A DNA stretch of 64,000 bases. Source: Rhodobacter sp. NTK016B (GTDB lineage Bacteria; Pseudomonadota; Alphaproteobacteria; Rhodobacterales; Rhodobacteraceae). Below are positions 36,013 through 56,938 of the stretch, one piece after another. The stretch is from positions 186,001 to 250,000 of the forward strand of contig NZ_JAFKOK010000002.1 of the NCBI RefSeq assembly GCF_017303295.1, read 5' to 3'. Both the position numbers and the translations under genes were made by a program. The stretch's first letter is position 1, and the number at the start of each line of letters is the position of its first letter. The notes beneath the pieces are model-generated. The model made no database searches, was not told the DNA's origin, and worked only from the letters and a program-made list of their open reading frames with translations.

Positions 36013-36399
36013 ACCTCGGAAGGCGATCCAACTCCGGGTCCAACGGTTTGAACCCGTGACCAAAAGTGACTTGGCTCAAGATGCTGAAGCTATCGACAAA
36101 TTTCGGGCCACAAGCGTTGAAGGCAAGACCCCTCACTCGCCGCTGCAACAGCGCCACCACCGGACGCGGAGGCACGGCGATCACTACCACTCGCAAGAGA
36201 CTCCGACCACCAGACTGCCGAAATCCACATCCGCATCGACCTCATGAACCGCGTCAACGCACTCAGTACCGCCGGGATCGTCCGCGTGGCCTGACGGCGG
36301 TGAGGAAAGGAAGAGTCGCGCCGCAGGCGGCATTCCTGCAACTACGCCGGTCATCATACGAACTGCGACCGCAAGCACTACAATTTCAGGGCTGTAAGG
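36013..36399. other. Gene-poor stretch between the HTH gene and the tRNA fragment
   Basis: About 390 bases contain no reading frame that I would call a gene. A segment near 36041-36060 contains GGTTTGAACCCG, which resembles a tRNA T-loop, but no cloverleaf can be built around it. The remainder looks like decayed sequence next to a mobile-element border. Confidence 0.4.
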
Positions 36400-36444
36400 T
36401 GGTAGCGGAGGAGGGACTTGAACCCCCGACACGCGGATTATGAT
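36400..36444 (-). other. 3' fragment of a tRNA gene ending in CCA, probable attachment site
   Basis: Read on the minus strand from 36444 to 36400, the sequence runs through ATCATAA (anticodon-loop-like), a stem half TCCGC, a variable loop, a T-arm (GGGGG-TTCAAGT-CCCTC), the 3' acceptor half CTCCGCT, then A and CCA. The 5' half of a tRNA is absent: no D-arm or matching acceptor strand lies upstream. If the loop is correctly placed the anticodon would be CAU (Met or Ile-2). A 3' tRNA half with a sharp break in the anticodon region is the classic footprint of tyrosine-recombinase integration. Geometry puts the element to the right of this site. Confidence 0.65.
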
Positions 36445-36610
36445 ACAGCCGCAACTATTTGTTTCTAAACGACTTCACTGAAAAACTCCCTGTTTTCAGC
36501 CTCAGGAAGATCAATAACTTACCGGCTAAATGCAAAACGCAGCGGACGCTCTTTCGCGCAGGGTATCAGCACCATCGGTTCTGGACGGCACCAGCTTACA
36601 GCCCTAGACA

Positions 36611-36979
36611 ATGCCGACGTCACCGCGCGGCGAATCCATCATCCGGGTAGATTGCGCCTGTGGTCATCGCGCGGTGTTGCGGACTGCTGATCTGGGTGAG
36701 GCAGCCGCGACCTTTCGCGACATCCACCGACTGCGATGCAGCGTTTGCGGACGGAAGGGGCGGCCCGATGTGATGATCTGCAGTTGGTCGCCCGCGTCGG
36801 TGCAGGCTGCCTATCGGGGCAACTATCGGCCCTTAGCAGACCTTGGCCAGGATCACCGTCGCCGCGCCGCAGCTTCCCCAAAGCGTTCGTTCGTGCGTCG
36901 CGCAGCATTTTCGGAGTGTGAAGGTCGGCAGCGCGGACGAAGCTGCCGTTGGTTTGTTCGACAAATACCGTGGAGTTAG
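36611..36979 (+). CDS. Small protein with two CxxC-type pairs, zinc-ribbon-like
   Basis: The 122-residue reading frame has VDCACGHRAVLRTADLGEAA and RLRCSVCGRKGRPDVMICSW, two Cys pairs as in small zinc-ribbon proteins that I recall as hypothetical genes in Rhodobacterales. The C-terminal part (after about residue 85) looks less protein-like and Arg-rich, so the gene may be degraded at its end. No ribosome site is obvious at 36611. Function unknown. Confidence 0.45.
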   Translation: MPTSPRGESIIRVDCACGHRAVLRTADLGEAAATFRDIHRLRCSVCGRKGRPDVMICSWSPASVQAAYRGNYRPLADLGQDHRRRAAASPKRSFVRRAAFSECEGRQRGRSCRWFVRQIPWS

Positions 36980-37022
36980 ATAAGAGTGTCGGTGACGATG
37001 ACGCCAAAGGAACCAGCGACCG

Positions 37023-37481
37023 ATGCCAATGCCGTGGACATATCGGCACGCCTCCAAGGAATGGCGCGCTTTCCTCGATGACGTGAAAGAGCGCATGTCC
37101 CTCGAGTCAGACAACATGGCTTACACGGCGGTCGATGCGGTCTTTCAGGTGTTCCGGCGTCGTCTGACCGCTCAGGAGGGCTTGAACTTCGCAAGTATCT
37201 TGCCAAGCGTGCTTCGCTCGATCTTTCTTCAAAACTGGGATGTTACGGAGCCTCGCGCAGCGTTTGACGACCGAGAGACGCTCATCTCGGAAGTCAAGGA
37301 GGTGCGGGTAAACCACAACCTAACGCCGGACAATGCGATTGAGGCGACGGCATGGGCGGTTCGGCGCTGCACCAATGGAAGAGACTTCGAGCGCGTTTTG
37401 GCAAAGCTTCCGGCTGAAGCGCGCGCCTTCTGGCATGTCGACGTTGCGGATCCTGCCGAGCTGGAGCAACGGATCATTTAG
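37023..37481 (+). CDS. DUF2267 domain protein
   Basis: The 152-residue protein has the pattern PWTYRHASKEWRAFLDDVKE, SDNMAYTAVDAVFQVFRRRL, TAQEGLNFASILPSVLRSIF, as in DUF2267 proteins. AAAGGAA at about 37009 fits either ATG 37023 or 37029. DUF2267 proteins are small helical proteins with no agreed function. It is not part of an operon with the SIR2 gene; 230 bases separate them, in which I see no gene. Confidence 0.75.
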   Translation: MPMPWTYRHASKEWRAFLDDVKERMSLESDNMAYTAVDAVFQVFRRRLTAQEGLNFASILPSVLRSIFLQNWDVTEPRAAFDDRETLISEVKEVRVNHNLTPDNAIEATAWAVRRCTNGRDFERVLAKLPAEARAFWHVDVADPAELEQRII

Positions 37482-37711
37482 CGGCTTTACACCATTCGGA
37501 AGGTTTGGGCTCGGAGCGGTCATGCGGCGGCGCAGCGGGTCGTGCGCCGGCCAGACAGCAGCGGGCGTCGCTCCCGGCCCAGAGCTGTCGCTCAAGACAT
37601 ATCGAAGCGCCGCAGTGCAGCCACGCGTTAGATACAGAATGCGCTTCATTTTGTATTGTATTCCGTCATAGTCAAATAATCGGGGAACTTTGCAAATAAC
37701 GGGTATTGACT

Positions 37712-40700
37712 ATGAGATTCTTTGCGGATGGCCCTGCCATCCCTGATGTCCTCATGGAGCGTTGCGACGCTGGTCGGGTCGTCTTCCTCTGCGGTGCTGG
37801 AGTTTCATTTAACTCGGGCATGCCAACGTTTCTTGGGCTTACGAAGCATGTGATCGACTTCTTCGATCCACCTCAATATTCAGAGATCATGAAGGCTTTC
37901 GACCCTTGGCGAGCCGATCCAACCGCAGCAAATGTGCCCCTCGATCAGATATTCAATCTTCTACACCAGGAGTATGGTCGGGATGAGGTCAATGCGCTGG
38001 TAACAGAACGTTTGCTGATCCCATCGACATCAGAAACCGTCGGCTATGAACATGGCTTGATTAAGAGAATTTCATCGAACCAGCGTGGTGTCCCTCAGAT
38101 CGTAACAACCAACTTCGATCACCTTTTCGAATTTGGCGACGAAGCGGGCGGCATTCCAACCCATATTCCCCCGGCATTCCCTGACTTAACATTCGGATCG
38201 CCGATCGACGGTATTACCTATCTGCACGGTCGGCTCGTTGCGCGAAATGCAACCCAACACCCCTATGTGTTGAGCAGTGCAGACTTCGGTAGAGCGTATC
38301 TGTCCGAGGCATGGGCCACAAAGTTCATCAGCGGCCTGCTGGAACGATACACTGTCGTTCTTGTCGGGTATCAGGCTGAAGATCCACCCGTGAAATACCT
38401 TCTTCAAGGGCTCAACCACGACGGTCAGTTCGATCGAACTCGACTCTATGCCTTCGACCGAGGGGAGCCGGAAGCGATTGAAGCCAAGTGGCGAGATCGA
38501 GGCGTCACCGCCATCGCCTATCAAGATCATCCCCATCTATGGCGGTCCATGGAAGCCTGGGCAGAACGGGCTGACGACCCACGTGCTTGGCGGAGCCGGG
38601 TCGTCGCTTCTGCGCAACTCGACCCGAAGGAGATGTCACCTCACGAGCGTGGGCAAGTCGCTCATATCCTGCGTTCTGTTCCTGGAGCCAAGGCGTTTGC
38701 TAACGCCGAACCGTCGCCACACCCAGAGTGGGTTTGTGTTCTCGATGCATTCGTCCGCAATGCGAAGAAAAGCAGTGGATACCATGAAGAGGCCGAGGAA
38801 TTCGATCCTGTCCTAGCATATGGCCTCGACGATGACCTTGGTCCGATCAGCGATGAAGATTCCAGGCGAGGGATCAGAAACGACAATCTGCTCGAATGGC
38901 GGAATGGCGATGACAACCCACCAGATTTTCACCGCCTAGGAAGTCGCCAGCTAGAAGGCCATGAGGCGATGCCAACCCGCTTGTGGCATCTCATCCGCTG
39001 GATCGGCAAGTCATCTCAATCGCCAGTGATCGCATGGTGGGCGGCTCGTCAACTTGGCCTGCATCCTCGCCTCATCGATCAGATCGCTCGACACCTCGAC
39101 CAAGCGAAGGACCTTGACGAGAACTGCCGACGAATTTGGAACCTTATACTGGAACACCACCGTGACCCTCGAAACCGCAGGTGGCACGGGCGCTGGTACG
39201 ATCTAAAGAAACGCGTTGCCGAAGAGGGCTGGGTTCCGAGCGTCCTGCGTGACTTCCAAAACGCCGCCACACCATGCTTGCACAAAAAGGGCCCCATGGG
39301 CCTGCATGAAAACAAGCCGCCGACATCGGAATGGGGGGAACTCTGTATCGAAGAGATCGCTCGGTTCGAGGTCAAATATCTGGAGCGGCATGGCGAAGAC
39401 CTCGGCGTGCCAGATGAGGCCGTGCCTGCAGTTTTTGGTCTTCTGGAAAACCAATTAATTATAGCGGCAGGACTACTTTCCGACCTTGGTGTATCCTACT
39501 TCACCACGCCTACATGCTTCCCGGATCGGGAAACAGACGGTGGCGAGCAGTACCATGATTCTGCTGAGCAGTTTCTTCTGTTCATTGAGTTCTTCAACCG
39601 GCTTGTGGCACTCGCCCCCCAACGGGCGACGGCCCATGCAATGTTCTGGGACGAACGCGACGAGTACTTCTTTCGTAAACTGAAGCTCTATGCGCTGTCG
39701 AAGCCTGAACTGTTCGACGCGAACGACGCCGCCGGCATCATCGCCGGGTTCGATCAGGCGACGTTCTGGGACAATGACGTGGTGCGTGAACTTCTCTTCA
39801 CCCTAGTAGATCGATGGCAAGAACTCTCCGACGAGAGCAAGGAAGCCTTGGCTGAGCGTATCGTCGCGGGGCCCGACCAAAGGGACTATTGGTCAGACGA
39901 GGAATACCCTTCGCTTCGTGATCGGACTGCCGCCAGATATGGTCGTTACCTTCAATTGAATGGTTGCGATCTTCCCGATGCCGCTGCCACCAGATTGGCG
40001 CAAATCATCACTGAGATTCCGGATTGGACCGACGGTCGCGCTACTGCAACGGTAATAGAACACGGCATCCACGCAGGGTTTGTCGAAACGGACGAAACGC
40101 CGGATGAGATAATTGATCTACCAGTCGATGAAATCGTGGATCGAGCACAAGCCGATTCGCCACGACGCTTTCCCGATCTTACCGAGAGGAGACCTTTCAC
40201 TGGTCTAGTGAAGGCAAACCCTCGCAAGGCCCTTTCTTCTCTCTCGGTCGCGGCCAAAAAGGGCGACTATCCCAAGGCACTCTGGGCGGTAATGATCGTC
40301 GAGTTGCCCGTAAACATCGCTCCCCGTCTCAGAAGAGCCTTTCTGCTTCGTGTTGCTGGCCTCCCCCACCCAACCGTTATACAACTCCGTCATACATTGG
40401 GTCGTTGGCTGGAACAGAACCTAGTCAGGGTTCTTGAGTTCGACCATGACCTGGGCTGGATGGTTTTCGATCACGTTGTTGATGGTATCTTGAGCGGTGG
40501 AGCAAACGCCGCAGTAAGTGGTCTTGGAGAGGTCCGGCGGGCCGGAGAGGTTACCGGGCGATCCAGACGCACATATGGTCATGCAATCAACGGACCGTTG
40601 GGAATGTGCGCGAAGGCTTTGTTCCAAACTTTACCTGGGAAGAATCAGGAAGCCGGTTCTTTGGTTCCTGAGTACATCAAGGGACGGTTGGAACGCCTAT

Positions 40701-41521
40701 TCGCAGCACCAGGTGAAGGCTCAGATCACGCAGTGTCGATAACGACACGCCGGCTCAACTTGCTGATGCATATCGATCCCGACTGGACCAAAGAGCGCCT
40801 ATTGCCTCTGTTGGCATATGATCATCCGGCCTCGGAGCCAGCATGGAACGGTTTCCTTCACAGTCCGCGTGTCCCGTGGGCCCCGCTGGCCGAAGTTATA
40901 AAGCCCCTGATGCTCGATCTTTTTCCAAGGGTCGAAGACTTCTCATGGGACCGCAACCTCTCAAAAGTGGCCGCGCAATGGTTGGGTTTCATGCGGGTGT
41001 TTCATCCTGATGAACCAGGTGGTCTTACCAAAGTCGAGATGCGATCTGTTCTTCGGGCAATGTCAGACGGTTCACGCAATCAATTCATTTTCTGGTTAGG
41101 GCGCGTAGGGCAGAAAAACGAGGATGGTTGGGTCAAACACGTGGTCCCCTTCGTTCGTGAAAACTGGCCCCGAGAACGCCAGTCCCGAACTTCCGGGTCG
41201 GTGAGAGCTTGGATTAGTATGCTTGACCACACAGGCAATGACTTGCCCGCCGTTTATGAAGTTGTGAAGGAGTTCTTGGTGTCAGTGGATGAAGATAACC
41301 TTCCATTTTATCGTTTCTTCCGAGAGCAGGGAGAACAAGAACCTCTCGGTACTCAGTTTCCTGAGGTGACGTTGGATTTATTGCACAGGGTCACCCCAAG
41401 TGAGCTCGCTCGGCCCCATTATGATCTACCAAAAATGCTTGCGCTGATTTGCGAAGCTGAACCGTCTCTTGCCGCAGACTATCGCTATTTGCGCCTAATT
41501 GACTTGCTGGAGCGAAGCTGA
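37712..41521 (+). CDS. Large SIR2-domain protein, candidate NAD-depleting anti-phage defence protein
   Basis: The 1,269-residue protein starts with a SIR2 domain (about 1-300): the NAD-binding GAGVSFNSGMP (28-38), TTNFDHLFE (N134, D136) and the catalytic-type histidine in YLHGR (H172). The remaining ~950 residues are helical, without transmembrane segments; the last ~200 resemble the DUF4020 region seen in other SIR2 proteins (recollection, not a search). SIR2 proteins of this size, such as DSR1 and DSR2, degrade NAD when a phage protein is sensed, stopping phage growth. GC content is visibly lower than in both flanks, suggesting transfer. TTG at 37706 is an alternative start; ATG 37712 is preferred. 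Confidence 0.85.
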   Translation: MRFFADGPAIPDVLMERCDAGRVVFLCGAGVSFNSGMPTFLGLTKHVIDFFDPPQYSEIMKAFDPWRADPTAANVPLDQIFNLLHQEYGRDEVNALVTERLLIPSTSETVGYEHGLIKRISSNQRGVPQIVTTNFDHLFEFGDEAGGIPTHIPPAFPDLTFGSPIDGITYLHGRLVARNATQHPYVLSSADFGRAYLSEAWATKFISGLLERYTVVLVGYQAEDPPVKYLLQGLNHDGQFDRTRLYAFDRGEPEAIEAKWRDRGVTAIAYQDHPHLWRSMEAWAERADDPRAWRSRVVASAQLDPKEMSPHERGQVAHILRSVPGAKAFANAEPSPHPEWVCVLDAFVRNAKKSSGYHEEAEEFDPVLAYGLDDDLGPISDEDSRRGIRNDNLLEWRNGDDNPPDFHRLGSRQLEGHEAMPTRLWHLIRWIGKSSQSPVIAWWAARQLGLHPRLIDQIARHLDQAKDLDENCRRIWNLILEHHRDPRNRRWHGRWYDLKKRVAEEGWVPSVLRDFQNAATPCLHKKGPMGLHENKPPTSEWGELCIEEIARFEVKYLERHGEDLGVPDEAVPAVFGLLENQLIIAAGLLSDLGVSYFTTPTCFPDRETDGGEQYHDSAEQFLLFIEFFNRLVALAPQRATAHAMFWDERDEYFFRKLKLYALSKPELFDANDAAGIIAGFDQATFWDNDVVRELLFTLVDRWQELSDESKEALAERIVAGPDQRDYWSDEEYPSLRDRTAARYGRYLQLNGCDLPDAAATRLAQIITEIPDWTDGRATATVIEHGIHAGFVETDETPDEIIDLPVDEIVDRAQADSPRRFPDLTERRPFTGLVKANPRKALSSLSVAAKKGDYPKALWAVMIVELPVNIAPRLRRAFLLRVAGLPHPTVIQLRHTLGRWLEQNLVRVLEFDHDLGWMVFDHVVDGILSGGANAAVSGLGEVRRAGEVTGRSRRTYGHAINGPLGMCAKALFQTLPGKNQEAGSLVPEYIKGRLERLFAAPGEGSDHAVSITTRRLNLLMHIDPDWTKERLLPLLAYDHPASEPAWNGFLHSPRVPWAPLAEVIKPLMLDLFPRVEDFSWDRNLSKVAAQWLGFMRVFHPDEPGGLTKVEMRSVLRAMSDGSRNQFIFWLGRVGQKNEDGWVKHVVPFVRENWPRERQSRTSGSVRAWISMLDHTGNDLPAVYEVVKEFLVSVDEDNLPFYRFFREQGEQEPLGTQFPEVTLDLLHRVTPSELARPHYDLPKMLALICEAEPSLAADYRYLRLIDLLERS

Positions 41522-41850
41522 CACCATTTTTGCGTTCCAGCTAACTGGGACACGTCGATATCTCTTCCTATCCGAACTGGTCGACTAATGCCTGCGACCC
41601 TGAGCCAACCTTCGTGCGTGGCTCGACGGCTTGTCGGCGTTTAGCATTAGGGCGCTTTAGTTGACACGCAGCGAACGACCGCTTCCCGCCCAGACCTGCC
41701 GTTCGTTGGTGGCGCAGCGGAGCACCGGTCCCGACCCGAAGCGGCCCCAAGGACCTTCGCCGCGAATTTACGATAGCCGACCAATGCCGTGCAGGTTACG
41801 AAAGGAAAAAAGGTCGCCGAGTAGCAGTCCAGTCGTGGAATGTCAGTGTA
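41522..41850. other. Intergenic stretch after the SIR2 gene
   Basis: These 329 bases hold no gene I can support. At about 41660-41760 there are imperfectly repeated phrases (CAGCGAACGACCGCTTCCC and CAGCGGAGCACCGGTCCC) reminiscent of non-coding intergenic repeats in Rhodobacteraceae. No clear terminator follows the SIR2 stop. Confidence 0.4.
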
Positions 41851-42342
41851 ATGGAACCTGAGACGTATCGCGCATCCCCCATCCTCGGACCCGTCATCGG
41901 CGGAATGCTCGGGGTCATTTATCTTGTGATGTACTTCGGCATTCCGCTTGTCGCGTCGGACATGCCCGACGGCTTTGGCGTCGGTGGCGCCGTTGCCTTC
42001 ATCGTGTCCTGGATAGCCGTGACCGCCATAGCGGCCCTTATCGGCATGCGTGTTGTCCTGCGGGTCAACGAATACGGGATCGAGTCGCGCGGGCGCAAGC
42101 TGGCCTGGAGCGATATTGCGAGTATCGAGCGCGAGAACCGGACCGTCGTGACACACGGCTACAACAGCGCGTCCGGCATCACCACGCGACGAACGCAGCA
42201 CGATCTGGTGATTTTTCATCCAAAGGCCAAAAACGCCCCGGCGCTGGAGATCAACGCTGCTTTGATGAATTCGGGCGCGGACGTGTTGGCGGAGAAGATG
42301 CGGCGCTATCTCGCTTCTTATCGCACGCCCGACACGCGCTGA
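41851..42342 (+). CDS. Membrane protein of unknown function
   Basis: The 163-residue protein has two membrane segments (about 10-32, PVIGGMLGVIYLVMYFGIPL, and 45-68, VGGAVAFIVSWIAVTAIAAL), then a cytoplasmic part with VLRVNEYGIESRGRKLAWSD and IASIERENRTVV that resembles a bacterial PH-like beta domain. I do not recognise a specific function. It stands alone between the SIR2 gene and the lipoprotein gene. Confidence 0.6.
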   Translation: MEPETYRASPILGPVIGGMLGVIYLVMYFGIPLVASDMPDGFGVGGAVAFIVSWIAVTAIAALIGMRVVLRVNEYGIESRGRKLAWSDIASIERENRTVVTHGYNSASGITTRRTQHDLVIFHPKAKNAPALEINAALMNSGADVLAEKMRRYLASYRTPDTR

Positions 42343-42673
42343 CCTGCTCCTGATACGCGCACCGACCGCCTGTACGCGCGCCAGAGCCACGTCCAGCGGG
42401 TCCTCTGGGGCGACGGGTGTTCCATGCTCTTGCCGACACAATTCCAGCAGCTAGCGCAGCTCTCGTGCCTCTGCCTTGCGCGCCATTGCATCGCGACACT
42501 CGGCGCGAGCACCTTCGCGAGAGCAGGCTGAACAAGCTACACACGCCTTGAGCGCTGACCGGCAAGCGCAAACAACAACGTGCGCCTTCGGTCGCACCTA
42601 AGTACCAAAATTCTATAGAAACTGCGTTCGGCGAGGACCCGAAAGCCGCATGCGCTGATATCAGCGCGGCGCC
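42343..42673. other. Gene-poor stretch with a degraded reading frame on the minus strand
   Basis: A minus-strand frame here reads MARKAEARELR, a stop, then LLELCRQEHGTPVAPEDPLD. It may be the remains of a gene but cannot be assigned. The 16-bp palindrome at 42652-42667 is listed separately. Otherwise nothing is visible. Confidence 0.35.
42652..42667. repeat. Perfect 16-bp palindrome GCGCTGATATCAGCGC
   Basis: The sequence is identical on both strands with no loop. It lies 6 bases beyond the stop of the lipoprotein gene (42674). With no spacer it is a better protein-binding site than a terminator; its role is unknown. Confidence 0.5.
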
Positions 42674-43126
42674 TTAGGCATTGAACCACCGCGTTGTTGT
42701 CGGCGCGCAGCTTTCCGTGCGCCCACGCCCGTTTCCGAATTCCACGCGGCAGAGATAACCGCTGTCAGTCTCGAAAACCTGAAGGCAACTGCCGGTCCAA
42801 CTGCCTTGCGGGGCAACGCAAAGCCCACGCCCCTCGGCGCTCGCGACGGTGCTGCGCGTGACGATCATCCGTGAGCCGCGGCTAATCCAAAAAGCCGTGC
42901 CGTCGGGTTCAAACCAGAAGCCCTCTTCTCGGTCAAAAAGCCAGCCGCGCGCGGCAGCCATATCGCCGCGCATTACCTCGGGTGTTACCGGGGTTCCGCT
43001 GATCTCGGATGCGCTTTGCACGCAGCCGCTTACACCCAAGGCCAAGGCGAGGACGGGCGCCATCAGCCAGTGCAGGGCACCCGAACGTGCCGCCATTTTG
43101 TCCGCGCTCACTTGCGATAGTTCCAT
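42674..43126 (-). CDS. Small predicted lipoprotein of unknown function
   Basis: The 150-residue product has a hydrophobic segment followed by LGVSGC, a lipobox placing an acylated cysteine near residue 32. The mature part contains FWFEPDGTAFWISRGSRMIV and cysteines in LCVAPQGSWTGSC and YLCRVEFGNGR. ATG 43126 is used; upstream ATG 43144 is possible. It may be a prophage-carried gene at the attachment-site end or a host gene. Confidence 0.6.
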   Translation of the reverse strand: MELSQVSADKMAARSGALHWLMAPVLALALGVSGCVQSASEISGTPVTPEVMRGDMAAARGWLFDREEGFWFEPDGTAFWISRGSRMIVTRSTVASAEGRGLCVAPQGSWTGSCLQVFETDSGYLCRVEFGNGRGRTESCAPTTTRWFNA

Positions 43127-43321
43127 ATGCTCGTCGCCTTTCATAATGGCTCTGCTGTTCGACGGTTTCTGCAGGAAACAAGCTACTCGCAGGGATCGCG
43201 CTTTCGTCGAAACCACAGCCCCTTTGTCGGACACGCCGGTGTCGATGACTAGGCTACTGGCACGGAAAGCAACGATCCAGACAATTATCAACCAAAAGAG
43301 TATATTACTGAAAATTGGGAT

Positions 43322-43351
43322 CATTGAGGTGTTGTTAAACATCCCTCAATG
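43322..43351 (-). terminator. Candidate terminator after the lysis cassette
   Basis: CATTGAGG at 43322-43329 pairs with CCTCAATG at 43344-43351. It lies just downstream (minus strand) of the o-spanin stop at 43358, followed by a short T run (AATTTT), as expected at the end of a phage late operon. Confidence 0.6.
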
Positions 43352-43357
43352 CAGATG

Positions 43358-43615
43358 TTAGTCATTTGCCGCTTCAGTAATGCCAACCATGTTGCGCGCC
43401 ACAGCTACCACACAGGTGACGTTCTCGGAAGCCACAAGGCCCGATACGAAGCTGTCGTGGAGATCCAGCGCACAGACGGCCAGCCGTTCGATCTCAGGCT
43501 CTAGGGCATCCAGAACAGGGTGCTCGATAAGCAGAGGATCACTGGTGCAAGCGCTCAAATCGATCACGCAGGAAATCAAGATCGTCAGCTGTGTCACCAA
43601 TCGAGATAGGGGCAT
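43358..43615 (-). CDS. Rz1-like outer-membrane spanin lipoprotein
   Basis: The 85-residue protein starts MPLSRLVTQLTILISCVIDL and has the lipobox LSAC at about residues 21-24, so it is exported and acylated. Its start lies inside the Rz-like gene (43539-43808) in a different frame, overlapping by 77 bases. Nested or overlapping Rz/Rz1 is the classic two-component spanin arrangement, whose products fuse inner and outer membranes in the final lysis step. The low-complexity, unconserved mature part is typical. Confidence 0.7.
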   Translation of the reverse strand: MPLSRLVTQLTILISCVIDLSACTSDPLLIEHPVLDALEPEIERLAVCALDLHDSFVSGLVASENVTCVVAVARNMVGITEAAND

Positions 43616-43808
43616 CGCCAATCCTTTCACGGGTTTCTTCGGTCGCTCGATCAAGGACAGCTTGGGCATCAGACCAGCCCGCCGCGTAACCTTGGTCATA
43701 CATGCGCCAGCTGAAGCCCAGCCCGGCGGTGAATAGCGCTCCGCCCAGCAAGCCAAATACGACAAGGGCGTATGGCCATGTGAAGCGGGTAAGAATTGCG
43801 GCGATCAC
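43539..43808 (-). CDS. Rz-like inner-membrane spanin
   Basis: With a GTG start at 43808 the product is 89 residues: an N-terminal membrane anchor (WPYALVVFGLLGGALFTAGL), then a charged periplasmic helix (WSDAQAVLDRATEETRERIG) and DTADDLDFLRDRFERLHQ. It overlaps the endolysin stop by 4 bases (GTGA). Small size, one anchor and a coiled helix fit an i-spanin. Its partner lipoprotein starts inside it in another frame. Confidence 0.7.
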   Translation of the reverse strand: MIAAILTRFTWPYALVVFGLLGGALFTAGLGFSWRMYDQGYAAGWSDAQAVLDRATEETRERIGDAPISIGDTADDLDFLRDRFERLHQ

Positions 43809-44830
43809 GTCCGCCACGCCCCTCTGACGCGCCTCAGCACCACCGGCGCGATCCACACGAGCGCCAGCCCGAACGCCACCCACAGCCCGACCTGCCAGAG
43901 CACCGGGGGCAGCGTGGGTTGCAGGGCGACCACGGCCGGGACCGCCGCCGCGACGGGCGCGACGTAGCCCGCCGCTGTTGCGGCAAGTGCGGTGCGACGC
44001 TCGGCCGTCGAGCGCTGCGCGGGGGCATCGGCCGCGACCGGGGCCTCGACGCCGAGCGCTTCCCACGTCCGCCGCCCGACCACCCCATCGACGGGCAGGC
44101 CCGCCGCGCGCTGGAAGGCTTCGACGGTTTCGAGCGTCAAGGGACCGAAGGCGCGATCCGAGGGAATACCAAGGGCCTCTTGAAGCACCGCCACGGCCGG
44201 GCCGCGATCGCCCACGCGTAGCACCACGGGCGAGCGTGCGCCGCCGGAATGACGCCGGAATGCCGCCTCGATCCGCGCCGCATAAACCTCGGGTTGCCCG
44301 CTACCGTTGTAGCGGCGGGCAAAGCTCAGCCAGTCATGCGCGCGCAAAGCGGCATCCAGCCCCCACGCCGTCACCAGCGCAACGAAGGCGTCCAGATGCG
44401 CGGGCGCGCCGCGTGCCATCGCCTCGACCATGTCTCGCGCCGATGCCGACCCGGCCGCGCCATGGTTAAAGCCCATGATCTGCGGGCCGCCCCAGCTCGA
44501 CGCCATCAGCGCGGCGTCCATGTCGAGTTGCGCGGCGGTCGAGAACATCCGCGCGCGGGCGGATTGCGACAGCGCCAGCGAGGCCCGCCACGGGGCCTGA
44601 CCCGCGCGCGGTGCGAAGCCCATCGCGGACCAGAGCGCGCGCGGGACGTGATGCGGCTCGAAGCGACGCAGGACGCCGCCCGAGGCATCAAAGCACCGGC
44701 CCGAGGCTTCGACCTCCCAGACCGCGCGCAGAGCGGCCGGGTCGCAGCCGAGCCGCGCGGCGGCGCGCTGGAAATCGGCGGAGGACAGGTCGCGGGGCAT
44801 CGCGGCCCCGATCCAAGGTGTCGCGGTCAT
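43805..44830 (-). CDS. Phage endolysin: N-acetylmuramidase domain, peptidoglycan-binding domain, C-terminal membrane segments
   Basis: The 341-residue lysin has an N-acetylmuramidase (DUF3380-type) domain at about 18-195 with E41 in WEVEASG, FEPHH, SWGGPQIMG and RYNGSG, followed by a peptidoglycan-binding domain (about 202-260, LRVGDRGPAVAVLQEALG). The last 60 residues form two hydrophobic segments (about 283-303 and 310-332) and an RR-rich tail. C-terminal membrane segments are unusual for an endolysin and may tether it, or fuse a holin-like part. It is followed by the spanin pair and preceded by a small membrane protein. Confidence 0.85.
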   Translation of the reverse strand: MTATPWIGAAMPRDLSSADFQRAAARLGCDPAALRAVWEVEASGRCFDASGGVLRRFEPHHVPRALWSAMGFAPRAGQAPWRASLALSQSARARMFSTAAQLDMDAALMASSWGGPQIMGFNHGAAGSASARDMVEAMARGAPAHLDAFVALVTAWGLDAALRAHDWLSFARRYNGSGQPEVYAARIEAAFRRHSGGARSPVVLRVGDRGPAVAVLQEALGIPSDRAFGPLTLETVEAFQRAAGLPVDGVVGRRTWEALGVEAPVAADAPAQRSTAERRTALAATAAGYVAPVAAAVPAVVALQPTLPPVLWQVGLWVAFGLALVWIAPVVLRRVRGAWRT

Positions 44831-45114
44831 CGGATGCGCTCCAAGCTGGTGATCAATCGGTTGATGTCGGTGCGGACGCCCTCAAGCCCTTCCTCGATGC
44901 GGCCGAGCTGGACGGCCTGCGAGGCGGCTTGGCCGCGCATGATCTCGACGCGCTGCTCCATCGCGGTCAGCCGCGCGGCATTGCCGGTGACGGTGTTGCG
45001 CAGCGTCGTTATGAACATTGCCACGAGGACAATTTGCGTCACCAGAACCACCAGAGTGGCAATCGGGATACGCTTGTCGAAATGCCAAGGCTCGGGGCGG
45101 TCAGGCTGCGGCAT
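44827..45114 (-). CDS. Small membrane protein with coiled coil, lysis-region
   Basis: The 95-residue product has one membrane segment (about 17-38, IPIATLVVLVTQIVLVAMFI) and a C-terminal helix with heptads (LTAMEQRVEIMRGQAASQAV). It overlaps the endolysin start by 4 bases. A holin or holin-accessory role is possible, but one transmembrane helix and a coiled coil fit better as an endolysin partner or anti-holin-like protein. Confidence 0.6.
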   Translation of the reverse strand: MPQPDRPEPWHFDKRIPIATLVVLVTQIVLVAMFITTLRNTVTGNAARLTAMEQRVEIMRGQAASQAVQLGRIEEGLEGVRTDINRLITSLERIR

Positions 45115-45150
45115 GGCGGGGTCCTTCGGTCAGAATGGCGGTTTGCAGGG

Positions 45151-45570
45151 TCATGCAGCCGCCCCCGGCAGGGTGGCGATCGCGGCGGCGACCTCGGCCT
45201 CGGTCGTGGCGGCGTCGATCGCTGCGCCCGTCGCCATACGCAGGGCTTCCAGCGTCGCGGCGGTCGCGCGCCAATCGGCCGACAGCGAGATCCAGAGCGC
45301 GGCCAGCGCGGCGGCATCGGGGGCGGTGATTCCGATCTCGGCCGACAGCAGCGGATAGTCGGCGAGATCGGGCGACGGGTCGGCGACATAGGCGCGCGCC
45401 TCGGCTTCCTTGGCCTGATAGATCAGGTCCTGCCCCGGCAGATCGGTGATCGCAGCGCGCCGGGCAGCGGCCATCCAGTCATGCAGATGGCGCTTTGCCT
45501 CGGTCTTGGCACCGGCCAGTGCAGCGGCGGCAATGTCTTCGGCCGTTTCGATGGTTTCAAAGGTGATCAT
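45151..45570 (-). CDS. Prophage protein, probably tail-fibre-assembly-like
   Basis: The 139-residue helical protein begins MITFETIETAEDIAAAALAG and is Ala-rich. It follows the tail-fibre gene and a beta-rich protein in the late operon, overlapping the latter by 4 bases. Position suggests a tail-fibre chaperone, but no family motif is clear. Confidence 0.6.
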   Translation of the reverse strand: MITFETIETAEDIAAAALAGAKTEAKRHLHDWMAAARRAAITDLPGQDLIYQAKEAEARAYVADPSPDLADYPLLSAEIGITAPDAAALAALWISLSADWRATAATLEALRMATGAAIDAATTEAEVAAAIATLPGAAA

Positions 45571-45887
45571 ACGGCGGGTTCCTCGATGCGGTCGGCGGGG
45601 ATGGTGACAGGCCCGTCTGCGACGGTGACGGCCCACGGGCTGGCAAGCTGATCTGGCGCGGCGGTGTCATCCAGCACGACGCGGATCGTCGCGTGGATCA
45701 CCCCGCCTTCGCGGGTGATGGGGCCGACGAAAGGATGATCGCCCGGCGCGGGCGTGGCGCGGCCGCCCTCGGGCACGGGGGCGAGGTCATAGGCCACGCC
45801 GTCGATGATTAGCACGTCACCCGCGACGGAGATCACGGTCTCGACTTGGCCCGGCAGGCCGCGAATAGGGGAAAGGATCAGATGCAT
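45567..45887 (-). CDS. Prophage hypothetical protein
   Basis: The 106-residue beta-rich product begins MHLILSPIRGLPGQVETVIS with DVLIIDGVAYDLAPVPEGG, a pattern seen in hypothetical genes beside phage tail fibres. It lies 10 bases after the tail-fibre gene on the minus strand. Function unknown. Confidence 0.6.
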   Translation of the reverse strand: MHLILSPIRGLPGQVETVISVAGDVLIIDGVAYDLAPVPEGGRATPAPGDHPFVGPITREGGVIHATIRVVLDDTAAPDQLASPWAVTVADGPVTIPADRIEEPAV

Positions 45888-45897
45888 AGGGATCTCC

Positions 45898-47016
45898 TCA
45901 GAACCAGCGGCCGATGAACATGAGCGTTATGGCAACCTCGGCGGCAGAGCCGCCCGGCCCACTTCCATCTCGCGTGATGAACCAACCCGTCGGCGATGAC
46001 GGCCCCCAGCTCGATAGCGATTGCAGATTGTCCCGTGCGGCAGAGCTCCCCGACCGGATGCTCGGTGAGCCGCCCGCTGGGGTACTCACGAATGCCGCAG
46101 GGAAAGAGCCGCCATAATTGCCCGCCACGGCGAAATTAGGCGACGCATAGATCCAACAGAACTGCGTCCCATCCGGGAGACGCAGATACTCGCCATTGCT
46201 GTTGCTGCCGCGCTCGAACAACCCGCCCGTCGGGACACCGCCTGACTGCGAGACGAGGCCGAGAACGGAATGCTGCGTGTAATCCTTGACCCATTCCCCC
46301 CAGGACGATCCGCTGTAGCGCCTTGACCAGCGCTCGCGTGTGCCAGCGGCCCGCTCGGCGGTCTGGATCAATGCTGTGGCGCTGAAGCGCGTCAACCGGA
46401 CAAAGCCGTAGTTCCCTGCGACCCAGCCGGGTGGTGTACTGGTGCCGTTGCCCGTCGTTGTCACGGAGAACACATAGTCACCCGACGGGGTATCGATCGC
46501 GTCCCAATTGCCGAGATTTGGCGGAAAGCCCGTTACTCCAAGGCCGAAGTCTCCGACCTTCAGCAAACGATCTTCGGTAGCGTCCAGCGCGCTTGCCGTC
46601 ATCACCGGGTCAGCCGCCAGAAACGCCCGCGCCGCCGCGCCGAAGTCGGTCAGCCCCATGACATTCTCGCCCGTGAAGTAGGGCAGTTTGTTCGCTACGC
46701 CCGGCAGGTCCGCGAGCGAGGTCAGCGTGCCGCCATCGAGCGCCTGCAAGAGCGTGTTCGCGGCAATGAGCGCGCGCAGCCCGTCGTCGAGTTGCAGGAT
46801 GGCGTAATTGACTGCCGCCTGCGTTGCGGCGGGCCACGCATTCGCCAGCGTGATCCCGGCGGCCGAGGTCACTGAGGCGATCTCGGCGACCGCGCCGCCC
46901 GCGATCAGCAGATCCCCCGGCCGCGTGCCGCTGGTGGTCCATGCGGTGCCCGACCCGGTCACGTTCGTGGACCCGGCCCCGATCGAGATCGCGCCGGTTT
47001 TGTAGAGTGTCGTCAT
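45898..47016 (-). CDS. Phage tail fibre protein
   Basis: This 372-residue protein begins MTTLYKTGAISIGAGSTNVT, continues GSGTAWTTSGTRPGDLLIAG (a fibre N-terminal module that attaches to the baseplate) and ends in a beta-rich Gly/Ser domain finishing ITLMFIGRWF, a C-terminal signature of tail fibres and tail collar proteins. It would bind the host surface. Host range is probably determined by the last 200 residues. Confidence 0.75.
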   Translation of the reverse strand: MTTLYKTGAISIGAGSTNVTGSGTAWTTSGTRPGDLLIAGGAVAEIASVTSAAGITLANAWPAATQAAVNYAILQLDDGLRALIAANTLLQALDGGTLTSLADLPGVANKLPYFTGENVMGLTDFGAAARAFLAADPVMTASALDATEDRLLKVGDFGLGVTGFPPNLGNWDAIDTPSGDYVFSVTTTGNGTSTPPGWVAGNYGFVRLTRFSATALIQTAERAAGTRERWSRRYSGSSWGEWVKDYTQHSVLGLVSQSGGVPTGGLFERGSNSNGEYLRLPDGTQFCWIYASPNFAVAGNYGGSFPAAFVSTPAGGSPSIRSGSSAARDNLQSLSSWGPSSPTGWFITRDGSGPGGSAAEVAITLMFIGRWF

Positions 47017-47047
47017 GCGACCGTCCTTTGTTTAAGGGAAAGGGCGC

Positions 47048-47953
47048 CTAACCCACGTTGCGCGCGAGATAGGCGATGATGTCGTGGCTGTAGCTGTAGT
47101 AAGGCTGCGGGTTCTGGCTGGCCGGGTTCTCGTACTCGACCGCCGCGCCGGTATTGCGCGAGACCCGGATGGTGCTGGCGTCGATCTGTTGCAGCTCGAC
47201 CCGGTCCATGCGCCAGGTATCAATCCGCCGCGTGCCACTGCCCGCAAAGCGGCGTCCGAGGAACACGACGTTGAAACAACTCAGGATCGGCACCGAGACC
47301 CACGAATTGGGCATCGGTTCGGGCAAGGTCACGTCGCGCGTGGCGCCGTTATAAAGGACGTCGTCGGCAACGGCCTTCGGCACGATGAAGGCAAAGCGCA
47401 CCGCAAGGAACGTGTCGCGGCTATCGAAGATCACCGCGCCAGAGGCATCCCTGATCTGCATCCCGTAATCGCTCGCATAACCCCCCGGTGTCGGGATGGG
47501 CGCAAGGATGCGGTACTGCCGCACGCCGTTGACCAGACAGAAGGTGCCGCCCGGTACACCGGGGACGTTGATCTCGGTCTCGATCGCGCGATTGATGGGC
47601 TGCGCCGTCCAGCGATAGAAGGCCGAGAACCCGCCGCCCGCCGCATCGAAGACGGGCCGCACGGCATAGACCTTGGCCTCGGGGAAGCCCGGATAGCCGG
47701 TGCCCATGAGCTGCAAGGCGAACCCGCTATGCGGCATCGCGGTTGCGCCCGGCCCTTCGAAGCTGCGGGCCTGCCCGAAAGACAATTGATGCAGCCGCTT
47801 GGGGCTGGGCAAAGCCTGATATTCTTGGAACGCCGCTTCGGCCGCCGCGTCCGCGTCAATCGTGGCGCCGCTGGCGACGACGCGCAGGCAGCGCGACGCC
47901 TGATCGAAGACCGGCACGCCCGCGCTGTTGGTCAACTCAATCCCATAGGCCAT
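47048..47953 (-). CDS. Prophage structural protein of unknown function
   Basis: The 301-residue protein starts MAYGIELTNSAGVPVFDQAS and contains YGMQIRDASGAVIFDSR; such openings occur in phage proteins between the tail hub and fibres. It is beta-rich with no catalytic motif. Probably a baseplate or fibre-linked component. Confidence 0.6.
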   Translation of the reverse strand: MAYGIELTNSAGVPVFDQASRCLRVVASGATIDADAAAEAAFQEYQALPSPKRLHQLSFGQARSFEGPGATAMPHSGFALQLMGTGYPGFPEAKVYAVRPVFDAAGGGFSAFYRWTAQPINRAIETEINVPGVPGGTFCLVNGVRQYRILAPIPTPGGYASDYGMQIRDASGAVIFDSRDTFLAVRFAFIVPKAVADDVLYNGATRDVTLPEPMPNSWVSVPILSCFNVVFLGRRFAGSGTRRIDTWRMDRVELQQIDASTIRVSRNTGAAVEYENPASQNPQPYYSYSHDIIAYLARNVG

Positions 47954-47956
47954 GGC

Positions 47957-48340
47957 TCAGACCTCGAAGCGCGCGTTGAGACCCAGGAACACCAGCCAGT
48001 AGAAGCGCGGCGGCTGGACGGGCCAGCCGTCGGGCAGCGTGGCCGGGGCGATACTCATCGCCTTGGTGGCGTTGTTCCAATTGAGCGTCGGGAAGGGCGT
48101 CGCGGGCACGCTCGGGCGCACTGTCTGCGCCTGCCACCATTCTTGCCCGGCTGAGGGCGTCGCTATGCGCAGCTCGGGGCTGACATAGAACATCCCGTAT
48201 TGGTCATCGAAGCCCGGCACCCAGATCGTGCCCGAGAAGCCCCAAGCAAGGCGCTGCTCATCAATGACGCGCGGCATCGCCTCATCAATCGTCAGCGTTT
48301 CATTGCCCGCCGCGTCGCGGAATTCGAACCCGAACGCCAT
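47957..48340 (-). CDS. Prophage structural protein of unknown function (small)
   Basis: The 127-residue product starts MAFGFEFRDAAGNETLTIDE, a relative of the opening of the next gene (MAYGIELTNSAG), suggesting they share a module. It overlaps the tail-hub stop by one base. No further function can be seen. Confidence 0.6.
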   Translation of the reverse strand: MAFGFEFRDAAGNETLTIDEAMPRVIDEQRLAWGFSGTIWVPGFDDQYGMFYVSPELRIATPSAGQEWWQAQTVRPSVPATPFPTLNWNNATKAMSIAPATLPDGWPVQPPRFYWLVFLGLNARFEV

Positions 48341-51300
48341 CAGGACAGATCCCCGATGCGCACCCGCGCGATGCCGTTCTCATCGAAGACCCGCATGCCC
48401 GAGGTGTCCATCTCGACGCGCGCGCCGGTCCAGCCCGAGCGAATGGCGAACGTGCCGTCAACCGTGGTCGCGCCGGTCAGACGGATAGCCTCCCCGGTGA
48501 CATAGACATTGCCGCCGTCCACGATGAACGGCGTTCGCACGCCGCTGCCGGTGGCGATGACGAATTGATCGGCAAAGACACCTATGCGCGAGGGCGTGTT
48601 CCAGTCCGACGACACGTCAATAAAGAGCCCGGCTTCCTTGAAGCCGTAGCCATCCGCATAGCGCGCAGACATGGCGATGCGGGCGTAACCGCCCGGCCCG
48701 GCGAGGGTTTCCATCTTGAAGTTTGCGCCCGCCGTCGCGGCATCAACACTGCTTTCCAGCGCGGTCACCGAGGATGCCAGCGCCGACAGCTCGCCGTCGA
48801 TTTCCGAGACCTCGAGCGAAAGCGCATTCAGCGCCCATGCACTGGCGCGGGTCGCCAGCTCATCGTCCAGCTCGGACAGGTCAGCGTTGATCTGCGTGAT
48901 CGCGTTGGCATTGGCCGTGATCTGCCCCTCGGCCGTCGTCACGCGCGCGGTCAGGGCATTGAGGGCCGAGGCACTGGCGCGGGTGGCAACATCGCCTTCC
49001 AGCGCATCGAGACTGCTTTCGAGCGAGGTGACCGCGCTCGAAAGGCTTTCGACTTCATCCTCGGTCGCGGTGACACGGGCCGTCAGCGTGCTAACGGCGC
49101 TGGCGCTGGCCTTGGTCGCGAGGCCGCTTTCCAGATCCTCGATGTCGGCCTCAAGTCCGGTGACCGCGCTCGACACTGCGTCGATCTCGCCCTCGGCCGT
49201 GGTCACGCGCGCGCCCAGACTATTGAGCGCCGAGGCGCTGGCCTTGGCGGCAAGGTCATTCTCAAGCCCGCCGACGCTGGCCTCCAACGCGGTCAGGGCG
49301 GTGACAGCGGCATTGAGCGCGTTGCCCTGATCGACAACCTCGACCGTCAGCGCATCGAGCGCCCCGGCATTGGCGAGGACGGCGCCCTCGGCATCCAGCA
49401 CCTGCGCGCCGAGCTTGGTGATCGCCTCGGCAATGATCGTGACCTGCCCGTCCGTCGCATCCACGCGCGTGTTGAGCGCCTGCGTGGCCGAGGCGACATA
49501 GTCCCGCACGCGGCGGCGCTCGATCTCATCGCGGGCGGCAGCGTTCAGCCCTTCCAGCGCCACCCCGCGCAGGCTGCTTTGCAGATCCCGGATCGCGGCC
49601 GCGTAGGAATATTGCGAGCCATCCGACAGCAGCCCCACCTCGGCCGCGATGCTATCGACGGCACTCGCCAGCGCGTCCAGCCCGGTTGCGTCGTCATTCA
49701 CCGAGGCTTCCAGTGCCTCAATCGACGTGGCGGCGGCTTCCAGCCCGGCCTCGGTTTCCCCGACGCGCGCATCCAGCGCGTTGATCGCATTCGCGTTGCC
49801 GGTGATCTGACCATCGGCGGCGGTCAATTCCGCTTCCAGAGCGACGATAGATGAGGCCAGCGCACTATCGGCCGAGATCCGCGCCTGTTGCTCGGTCAGC
49901 AGCTCGGCCGAGGACGCCCCCGGCGACGGTCGGCCGATCGCGATCCAGTCGAGCTCGTAGTAATTCGCGGCATCGGTGCCGTCGCCCAGATCAAGCCGCA
50001 TCGCATCAATCGCGCCCGACCAGCCGGGGGTAAAGGTGATCTCGGCCACCCCTTCCGAGCTGAAGGCCGGTTCATCGAGCGTCACGCGGCGGGCTGCATC
50101 CCAACCCTGACCAGCACCGGCCCACCACAGATGACCCGCCCAGACCGGCGCCCCAATGGCGCGGATACGGGCGCGCACCTGCGCATACATCGCGGCCTCG
50201 ACACCAAGGCCCGAGGGCGAGACCGCCGAGGACCCGAGGCCCGGCCGCAACCATCCGTCCGACGCGGTCGGCGCCACGGGCGCGCCGGTCCAGCCCTCGG
50301 TCGTCGTGTCGAAATACCAGATCGCCGCATGGTCGAATTGCTGCGCCGTGCCCACCGCCACCGCCGCGACCAGCGAGGCGAGCGCGTTGTCCCCGTCGAT
50401 CCGGGCCTGATCCACTTGGTTGATGGATGCCGACAGGTCGTCGCTTGTCGCCTCGACACTGGTCAGCCGCGCGGCCAGCGCGAAGTCCGCATCGGCCAGC
50501 GTCAGGACCTGTTCGTCAAAGCTGGCTTCCAGATCTCCGAGCTGGACCTGCACCGAGCGGCGGATCTCTTCGCGCGCGGCATGGTCATTGGCAGCCAGCT
50601 CGACCACTTCGGCCGCGACTTGCCGGATGCGATCGCGCTCGGCCCGCAACGCCTCGGCCGCCGCCTGCGTCTCGGCCGAGCGCGCGTCAGCTTCCTCGGC
50701 CAGCTCATCGGCCACCGCCTGCACCGCATCTGCGCGGGCCTGTGCTTCGTCGGCGAGCGCTTGCGCAAGATCGCGGACCTCGGGAATGCCGTCGTCGATC
50801 CAATCGCGCATCGTGCCCAGCCAGTCGACCAGCGCGGGCGCCAGATCATCGAGACCGAAGCCCACGGCGGGAACCGCGACCGAGGTCCAGTCTGTCCAAT
50901 CCGTCGGGCGATCGGCGTCATACTGCGCGCGGACTTCGTACACCCCCGCGAGAATGCCATCGGTGATCGCCGCGCCCCCGGTTGCGACCGGATACAGCGG
51001 TTGCTCGACGCCGTCGCCGGCATCGCCCTGCCGGCGGACGGCCACGCGGACGCCGCGCGCATCCTCGGCCCCATCCGCCTCCCAGCGGGCGAGGATGCCC
51101 GCGCGGCGGGGCTTGCCCTCAATCGTGATCGTGTAGGGGTCGGCCTGCCATCCTTCGACGGCTTGCGCGGCGGGCCTGACCGGACCCGGCGCGGGCGGTG
51201 TCGGGCGGATGATCCCCTCGGGGATCTCGTAATCCTCGGGCTCGACCTCGCGCAGCGACACCCGCACAAGCTGGGTGCGCAGATCGCGGATCGCCTCGGT

Positions 51301-52740: not shown

Positions 52741-53150
52741 TAGCGCACCTCCAAGACGGTGACGGCCTGTGCCAACGGCACAAGCGCCAGCCGATCCGGC
52801 GTCAGCACATAGACCGCCGCGCCCTGCACCACGCCGAGCGCGGGGCCGGTCTCGGTCGGGATGACAGCGAGATCGCCGGGCCGGGCACGTTCCCCATCCG
52901 CCCGCGTACGCAGATGCGCCGCCGCGAGGGCGACATGGTCGTGGTATCCGTCCTTGCGCAGAATGCGGATCCCGCCGCGCTCGGTCGTGTAGCGGCCGCG
53001 ATAGGGCGCGGCGAGATCCACGCCCGTCATCGCCGCCAGCGCGCCCGAGGCGAACAGCGCGCAATCGTGCTGCCCCGGCACAAACCTCTCCCGCCCGGCG
53101 GCTGCGAGATACGCAACCAGCCGGTTTTGCCAGCCCGGTGTTTTGTGCAT
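52740..53150 (-). CDS. Phage tail-associated cysteine peptidase-like protein (NlpC/P60-like, DUF6950-type)
   Basis: The 136-residue protein begins MHKTPGWQNRLVAYLAAAGR, with FVPGQHDCALFASGALAAMT (Cys in HDCALF as likely nucleophile), and a histidine in DHVALAAAHL. It lies directly before the tail hub, where GTA and siphoviruses encode an NlpC/P60-type cell-wall peptidase. It may cut peptidoglycan during DNA entry. Confidence 0.7.
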   Translation of the reverse strand: MHKTPGWQNRLVAYLAAAGRERFVPGQHDCALFASGALAAMTGVDLAAPYRGRYTTERGGIRILRKDGYHDHVALAAAHLRTRADGERARPGDLAVIPTETGPALGVVQGAAVYVLTPDRLALVPLAQAVTVLEVR

Positions 53151-53822: not shown

Positions 53823-53925
53823 TATATCTCCTTTAGAGGCTTGGAAAAGCGCCTGCGTGCTTCACATAATCATGTGGGCGGCACTCAGATAGATTTGAGC
53901 CACCAACATCTAGGAGACTGTTTTC

Positions 53926-54144
53926 ATGGTTGAAAAGCTCACGACGCCTTCACCCAAAGAGTTGAGAGACGCCCTGATTTCTGTGTTGACGCTGCAAGAA
54001 ATGACCCTGTCATTGCTCTTGAGGAAAGGCGTCTTCCATCAAGCAGATATCGACTTCATGGAAAGCGTTTTGGGAGCATCGCCAGAGCTTGCATACGCCC
54101 TTGACGTTGTCGAGCAAGCAAAGAACTCAATTCCCGAAGCGTAG
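53926..54144 (+). CDS. Small plus-strand protein of unknown function (accessory gene in the prophage)
   Basis: The 72-residue product (MVEKLTTPSPKELRDALISV) is encoded on the opposite strand to the tail operon. A TAGGAG ribosome site stands before the ATG. Its base composition is less GC-rich than the neighbouring tail genes. Accessory genes that insert into phage late operons with their own signals are called morons. Function unknown. Confidence 0.6.
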   Translation: MVEKLTTPSPKELRDALISVLTLQEMTLSLLLRKGVFHQADIDFMESVLGASPELAYALDVVEQAKNSIPEA

Positions 54145-54202
54145 CTTCGAGAGATTTCGCTTCGACCCAAACCAGCACTCAATGCTTGTGGTCAATGCGG
54201 CA

Positions 54203-56924: not shown

Positions 56925-56938
56925 GGGACAACAGGCCA

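What the first reader, a model, noticed from the sequence alone, without database searches (positions are those of the whole stretch)
37712..41521. Large low-GC SIR2 protein as a possible single-gene anti-phage system
The SIR2 domain keeps the NAD-site residues (GAG at 28-30, N134, D136, H172) and is joined to about 950 residues unlike common partners. The base composition differs from both flanks. It lies near prophage genes and inside the presumed element border. Size and organisation resemble DSR-type defence, but the C-terminal part appears different, so it may sense a different phage trigger.
Basis: partly seen in the sequence, partly recalled or inferred. Interest (0 to 1): 0.7.

Follow-up and report, generated by a model that had tools for sequence, protein, structure and literature searches.

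The report
Prophage-borne relative of Dsr1 sirtuin
A dormant virus in the genome of a bacterium related to marine roseobacters carries one large protein, a distant relative of the known anti-virus protein Dsr1, that probably stops other infecting viruses by destroying the cell's NAD.

Summary
Window 37712-41521 (+) is one intact 1,269-residue gene: an N-terminal SIR2 domain with every named catalytic residue, then about 970 mostly helical residues that no Pfam family covers. The claim that the C-terminal part differs from DSR1 is not: it aligns along nearly its whole length with Dsr1 (profile-profile probability 100%, 802 columns). It does look different from DSR2. The protein lies outside narrow Dsr1 (365 bits; NCBI's cut-off is 1400), in a deep, widely spread neighbouring clade.

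The gene sits inside a 41-kb siphovirus-like prophage integrated at tRNA-Met, 1.3 kb from the distal attachment site. A related prophage at the same tRNA in one genus-mate carries a methylase plus McrBC-type genes in that slot. Relatives at 61-63% identity lie among phage genes in three IMG/VR contigs; none was found in 50,697 sequenced phages.

Best reading: a single-protein sensor-effector that protects prophage and host from superinfection by NAD+ loss. The trigger is unknown. Defence and NADase activity are inferred, not measured. Verdict: new variant of a known kind, moderate interest.

The parts
37712..41521 (+). Dsr1-like gene, 1269 aa (SIR2 effector plus helical C-terminal part)
37712..38611 (+). 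SIR2 domain, residues 1-300; GAG 28-30 at 37793-37801, N134 at 38111-38113, D136 at 38117-38119, H172 at 38225-38227
   Evidence: Pfam SIR2_2 129-268, E 1.4e-13; residues conserved in 28 proteins; fold matches the DSR2 SIR2 domain
38612..41518 (+). C-terminal part, residues 301-1269, mostly helical, proposed sensor
   Evidence: AF2 model mean pLDDT 88.7, pTM 0.63; homologous to the Dsr1 C-terminal part
36395..36444 (.). attL core: 50 bases identical to window-frame 77540-77589, of which 45 are the 3' part of the intact tRNA-Met (cat) at 77545-77621
36395..64000 (.). part inside the window of a prophage of about 41.2 kb (it ends at window-frame about 77589; portal 63559-65034, terminase 65231-67360, integrase 76344-77459)
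37023..37481 (+). DUF2267 gene between attL and the Dsr1-like gene
   Evidence: Pfam PF10025, E 1.6e-25
43805..44830 (-). endolysin, the recognised late-operon gene nearest to the cargo slot
   Evidence: PHROG 1224, E 1.2e-57
54801..55613 (-). second candidate cargo gene, inside the tail operon, similar to PADLOC PDC-S31
   Evidence: E 2.8e-13; G+C 45.5%

Best explanation
A prophage-encoded, single-protein anti-phage defence of the Dsr1 superfamily. The long helical C-terminal part holds the N-terminal SIR2 domain inactive and binds a component of an incoming phage. Binding frees the SIR2 domain, which hydrolyses NAD+ with N134 and H172, so the superinfecting phage cannot complete its cycle and the resident prophage keeps its host or its host population. 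Shown here: intact gene under purifying selection, catalytic residues, full-length homology to Dsr1, prophage location. Inferred: NADase activity, phage trigger, auto-inhibition, protection.
For: Dsr1 models are the best PADLOC and NCBIfam hits (E 4.8e-82 and 6.5e-109). tblastn to an annotated Dsr1 is end to end and comparison of the C-terminal parts alone gives probability 100. Catalytic residues are conserved and correspond to N133/H171, whose mutation lowers or removes DSR2 NADase activity (PMC10981675 and PMC10973363, passages seen). dN/dS 0.15. The gene sits 1.3 kb inside the attL of a prophage. The same slot of a related prophage at the same tRNA carries an N6/N4 methylase, a McrB-like AAA protein and McrC (PADLOC recognises the first two, not McrC). 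Orthologues at 61-63% lie among phage genes in 3 IMG/VR contigs. The genus-mate G187 carries a different Dsr1-family gene beside phage head genes.
Against: No experiment. Score far below NCBI's Dsr1 cut-off (365 of 1400 bits) and not inside the clade of annotated Dsr1. No match in 50,697 sequenced phage genomes, so it is not common cargo of isolated phages. The left prophage border rests on the repeat alone. No convincing sigma-70-type promoter (one promoter-like site, on the other strand, against 1.8 expected by chance). In 6 of 35 relatives with enough upstream sequence the gene overlaps a KAP NTPase gene, so not every member need act alone.
Confidence: 0.8

Rival explanations
1. A sharper version of the best explanation: the same NADase defence, with the tail tube protein of siphoviruses as trigger, as for DSR2.
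For: DSR2, the closest solved architecture, is switched on by the SPR tail tube protein (PMC10981675, passages). The best Foldseek hits of the model of residues 1-1200 are DSR2 chains.
Against: No sequence match to DSR2 outside SIR2 was found, and the C-terminal model alone does not bring DSR2 into the 50 rows shown of 1049. The carrier prophage looks siphoviral itself (tape measure and distal tail genes), so its own tail tube protein would have to escape recognition.
Confidence: 0.3
2. It is kept to stabilise the prophage, as an addiction or competitor-exclusion module, not as phage defence.
For: Its place next to attL with its own orientation, and different cargo in that slot of a related prophage.
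Against: No antidote-like partner family recurs beside the gene among 50 relatives (families shared by 4 or more loci, +/-8 kb, many flanks shorter); Dsr1 itself is described as an anti-phage protein (PMC10952713, passage).
Confidence: 0.1
3. A two-part system in which a KAP NTPase regulates the SIR2 protein, decayed to one gene in the window.
For: In 6 of 35 relatives (>=46% identity, >=2 kb upstream) a KAP NTPase gene, matched by PADLOC PDC-S49 (tested for L078), ends with an ATGA overlap at the SIR2 start.
Against: The three of these six that are in the tree form one branch, nested among members without it; the window has no KAP remnant, so gain in one lineage is simpler.
Confidence: 0.05
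4. An ordinary sirtuin-type protein deacylase with a cellular role.
For: SIR2 fold; weak NCBIfam deacylase matches confined to residues 19-51 (E 0.017 to 0.21).
Against: Pfam finds SIR2_2 only; residues 1-300 hold two cysteines, C18 and C27, and no CxxC pair; patchy distribution (24 of 292 genomes of the order, own genome included) and mobile location.
Confidence: 0.03

Closest known systems
Dsr1 (anti-phage defense-associated sirtuin, NCBIfam NF041818, PADLOC Dsr1)
   Same: Size, SIR2 domain first, homologous C-terminal part over nearly its whole length, shared invariant residues W340, W430, W476, W686, G964, W1152 and P1153.
   Different: 22-24% identity only, 365 bits against a cut-off of 1400, separate clade.
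DSR2 of Bacillus subtilis
   Same: SIR2 fold and catalytic pair; large helical C-terminal part.
   Different: About 1,005 aa; no sequence match outside SIR2; no C-terminal fold match among the 50 rows shown.
Thoeris ThsA
   Same: SIR2 domain (weak matches).
   Different: Far longer; matches confined to SIR2; no ThsB among the five other window ORFs scanned with PADLOC.
Avs5 and SIR2-HerA
   Same: SIR2 effector coupled to a sensor or ATPase (families named from PMC10952713).
   Different: No NTPase domain in the protein or in the seven other window ORFs scanned with Pfam.

Membership tests
Dsr1, narrow (NF041818 equivalog) | score at or above the curated 1400 bits | tested here: not met
   365.3 bits; a true member in the order, G045, scores 1560
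Dsr1, narrow (NF041818 equivalog) | lies within the clade of annotated Dsr1 | tested here: not met
   Five annotated rows and G045 fall in one clade with 100% support; the window is in a separate 40-row clade (FastTree, SH-like support, midpoint root, long-branch warning)
Dsr1 superfamily (broad) | homology over SIR2 and C-terminal part | tested here: met
   tblastn 1-1268 in one piece; hhalign of residues 340-1269, prob 100, E 5.3e-49, 802 columns
Dsr1 superfamily (broad) | SIR2 NAD-site residues GAG, N, D, H | tested here: met
Dsr1 superfamily (broad) | acts alone (single gene) | tested here: inconclusive
   KAP NTPase gene in 7 of 50 neighbourhoods, or 6 of 35 with >=2 kb upstream; no other family in more than 6 of 50. 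Co-location cannot show that a protein acts alone
Dsr1 superfamily (broad) | phage protection by NAD+ depletion | not testable with these tools
   needs experiment
DSR2 | DSR2-type C-terminal sensor | tested here: not met
   only SIR2 matches by profile; no DSR2 among the 50 C-terminal fold hits shown; a weak fold match further down is not excluded
Thoeris ThsA | SIR2 plus SLOG domain and a ThsB neighbour | tested here: not met
   Pfam finds only SIR2_2; PADLOC ThsA E 0.081, no ThsB in five neighbouring ORFs scanned
Avs5 | SIR2 plus STAND NTPase in one chain | tested here: not met
   no NTPase domain found
SIR2-HerA | HerA ATPase gene beside the SIR2 gene | tested here: not met
   no ATPase family in the neighbouring ORFs scanned (not every ORF of the window was scanned)
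Classical sirtuin deacylase | classical SIR2 family with zinc-binding cysteine pairs (recalled) | tested here: not met
   only SIR2_2 found; no CxxC in residues 1-300

The most novel reading that the evidence does not exclude
A third, unnamed branch of large defence sirtuins, next to Dsr1 and spread over several phyla, that temperate phages carry as superinfection defence; its sensor reads a phage component other than the one DSR2 reads (so the carrier prophage is spared), and one lineage has added a translationally coupled KAP NTPase as regulator.
Probability: 0.3. Interest if true: 0.6.

Novelty: new variant of a known kind. Interest (0 to 1): 0.4.

Why it matters
It extends the Dsr1 kind of immunity to a large clade that the NCBI Dsr1 model leaves below its cut-off, and ties it to temperate phages. 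That raises a direct, testable question: how can a siphovirus-like prophage carry a sensor of phage components without triggering it during its own induction? Identifying the trigger of a KAP-free and a KAP-linked member would show what the long helical part recognises. In the searches I made of held papers (listings, plus passages of five papers) I saw no structure or trigger for Dsr1; a direct look-up of Garb et al. 2022 by DOI found it not held, and most subscription papers are missing too.

Tried and rejected
Integrase as anchor for sister prophages: 15 of 390 genomes of the order, the own one included, had a strong match. I asked for the presumed far end of 7; 3 stretches did not exist, and the other 4 showed neither an att repeat nor this prophage's proteins; the integrase relatives lie beside tRNA-Trp or tRNA-Met (6 of 7). 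Tape measure as anchor: 19 of 390 genomes, own included; I followed only G187. Endolysin as anchor: 32 IMG/VR loci, of which I looked downstream in 13. Low-GC genes follow the endolysin in L252 and L254, but PADLOC knew only one of five such ORFs, weakly (PDC-S31, E 6e-4); in several others ordinary phage genes seem to follow (judged by eye), so the slot is not a defence slot in general. The case for a defence slot rests on G306 alone.

The att DNA against phages gave no match over 80% of the query; where a feature is annotated it is mostly a tRNA. Whole-chain Foldseek superpositions with DSR2 have TM 0.17-0.23 and rmsd 30-47, so only the SIR2-only matches (TM to target 0.62-0.66, rmsd 5.0-5.6) are meaningful. 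The viral structure library was not searched.

Rows dropped: of 106 ORFs of >=1000 aa in L072-L179, 95 matched and 92 were full length; I used 62 of the 92 in the C-terminal alignment, 50 in the N-terminal one and 38 in the tree. The dN/dS row of L097 was dropped because its stretch is not a multiple of three and loses frame. Two half-length rows (G095, Enterobacter) were left out of the invariant count. L176 and the start of L048 are identical over 11,005 bases and count once.
Full report
What is there. The ORF at 37712-41521 (+) encodes 1269 residues without interruption. Pfam finds only SIR2_2 at 129-268 (E 1.4e-13). PADLOC gives Dsr1 (E 4.8e-82), and NCBIfam gives Dsr1 NF041818 (E 6.5e-109, but 365 bits against a cut-off of 1400). 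The window lies in a 4.84-Mb genome in which I found one copy.

Homology. In the order, 24 of 292 genomes, the own one included, have a match at E <= 0.001: one at 80% identity, six at 60-62% over the full length, the rest weaker or partial. In plasmids 60 records match, 31 covering at least 80%. In the listing of all 60, 8 are annotated Dsr1, at 23-25% identity, while the closer annotated relatives are mostly called SIR2 family protein. In 50,697 phage genomes there is no match.

The C-terminal part is not unlike Dsr1. Taken alone (residues 340-1269, 9 sequences) against that of Dsr1 (8 sequences: five annotated, G045 above the cut-off, and two grouped with it) it gives hhalign probability 100, E 5.3e-49 over 802 columns. 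Across 28 full-length proteins, the window's included, W340, W430, W476, W686, G964, W1152, P1153, P1217 and L1262 are invariant outside SIR2. A FastTree tree of 57 rows puts the window in a 40-row clade separated with 100% support from the clade that holds the six annotated or above-cut-off Dsr1 rows. That tree warns of long branches and is midpoint-rooted, so 'sister clade' is provisional.

Active site. G30, S32, T132, T133, N134, D136, H172 and G173 are invariant in the 28 proteins; G28 and A29 nearly so. In DSR2 the corresponding pair N133/H171 is needed for NAD+ hydrolysis (PMC10981675 and PMC10973363, passages seen). Avs5, DSR, ThsA and Argonaute-linked Sir2 domains share the motifs GAGxS and TTNxD (PMC12931631, passages). 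Residues 1-300 hold two cysteines and no CxxC, so the zinc ribbon of deacylases (recalled) is absent.

Structure. AlphaFold2 models (C-terminal part: mean pLDDT 88.7, pTM 0.63; residues 1-1200: 87.0, 0.55) show an alternating helix-strand N-terminal domain followed by a long, mostly helical part. For the C-terminal part Foldseek lists generic HEAT-type proteins (importins, CAND1) with TM mostly below 0.3 and no DSR2 in the 50 rows shown. For residues 1-1200 the first 46 rows are DSR2, but the superposition is meaningful only for SIR2. The sequence profile reaches DSR2 only weakly and only in SIR2 (E 0.02); its best PDB match is another SIR2-like protein, 8w9l (E 4.5e-5).

Selection. Against the two closest intact orthologues (L072, L095), dN/dS is 0.15 overall, 0.08-0.09 in SIR2 and 0.12-0.22 in pieces of the C-terminal part. 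Identity falls likewise: 90% SIR2 against 77% C-terminal part with G097, 73-75% against 56-57% with the next seven. This fits a constrained effector and a faster-changing sensor.

Where it sits. Window 36354-36452 is repeated, 86% identical with a 50-base identical core (36395-36444), at contig position 263499-263597. That second copy overlaps the 3' end of an intact tRNA-Met, and a tyrosine integrase lies beside it (Pfam E 6.6e-12). Between the two copies lie endolysin, tail fibre, tail-tip, distal tail, tape measure and protease/major capsid genes (PHROGs), portal and terminase. The element is about 41.2 kb and the gene starts 1.27 kb inside the left copy. All 18 genomes of the genus, own included, have some match to the right flank. 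I fetched 5: in 4 homology begins at window-frame 77541, the predicted border; the fifth, G306, carries a related prophage there. The left border is shown by the repeat alone: most of the sequence left of it (34.7-36.4 kb) is not conserved in the genus.

Cargo slot. In G306 the slot between attL and the tail genes holds, on the same strand as the window gene, an N6/N4 methylase, a McrB-like AAA protein and McrC (PADLOC recognises the first two). A genus-mate, G187, carries a different Dsr1-family gene (21% identity) beside head genes of a prophage; an IMG/VR record identical to it over 11,005 bases holds an endolysin 94% identical to the window's. Of 28 IMG/VR relatives, three are 61-63% identical: L154 lies between a baseplate assembly gene and a tail completion gene, L153 near spanin and endolysin genes, and L152 beside an integrase. 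These are signs of carriage by temperate phages. The absence from sequenced phages says that this is not frequent in isolates.

Partners. Among 50 relatives (>=46% identity or their full-length matches; +/-8 kb, many flanks shorter) four gene families are shared by 4 or more loci, the widest by 7. That one is a KAP NTPase gene (L078: Pfam E 1.8e-15, PADLOC PDC-S49 E 1e-133) whose end overlaps the SIR2 start (ATGA) in 6 of 35 loci with >=2 kb upstream; in L084 its frame has two stops. The window has no trace of it. The other three are shared by 6, 4 and 4 loci; two of them look like recombinases (by eye).

How it probably works. By analogy with DSR2, where a phage tail tube protein opens the SIR2 pocket (PMC10973363, PMC10981675, passages), the helical part should hold SIR2 inactive until a phage component binds; NAD+ is then hydrolysed. 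One review states that Dsr1, unlike other SIR2 systems, inhibits phage without cell death (PMC10952713, passage). The primary paper is not held. The trigger of this clade is unknown. Since the carrier looks like a siphovirus, recognition of its own tail tube must be avoided, which makes a different or narrow trigger plausible but unproven. I assume from gene order that the own tail tube gene is 59819-60283; neither PHROGs nor Pfam names it.

Verdict. The finding is real, its interpretation mostly right, and its 'different C-terminal part' wrong for Dsr1. I class it as a new variant of a known kind.

Noticed in passing
window 54801-55613: ORF of 45.5% G+C inside the tail operon, similar to the PADLOC defence candidate PDC-S31 (E 2.8e-13) and weakly to DUF2971 (E 0.046): a second possible defence cargo of the same prophage.
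   Followed up: partly
L078:8019-10001 and the same place in L079, L080, L081, L084, L133: KAP NTPase gene (PDC-S49 in L078) overlapping the start of the Dsr1-like gene; in L084 the KAP frame has two stops.
   Followed up: partly
window 33015-36350: Flotillin and YqiJ-like genes and a 'mobile mystery protein A'-like gene (104.6 bits, cut-off 122.6), low G+C; 34.7-36.4 kb is mostly not conserved in the genus, and a segment at about 36193-36350 recurs in several genus-mates. Perhaps a second insertion beside the prophage.
   Followed up: no
L048:129-3740: Different Dsr1-family gene (21% identity) beside phage head genes in the same genus.
   Followed up: partly
L051:8001-11419: C-terminal half at 51% identity on an Enterobacter hormaechei plasmid, with an IS3-family transposase gene inside the match.
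   Followed up: no
G000:C24:376-2532: A second tape measure gene, 57% identical, at a contig edge of the same genome: probably another related prophage.
   Followed up: no
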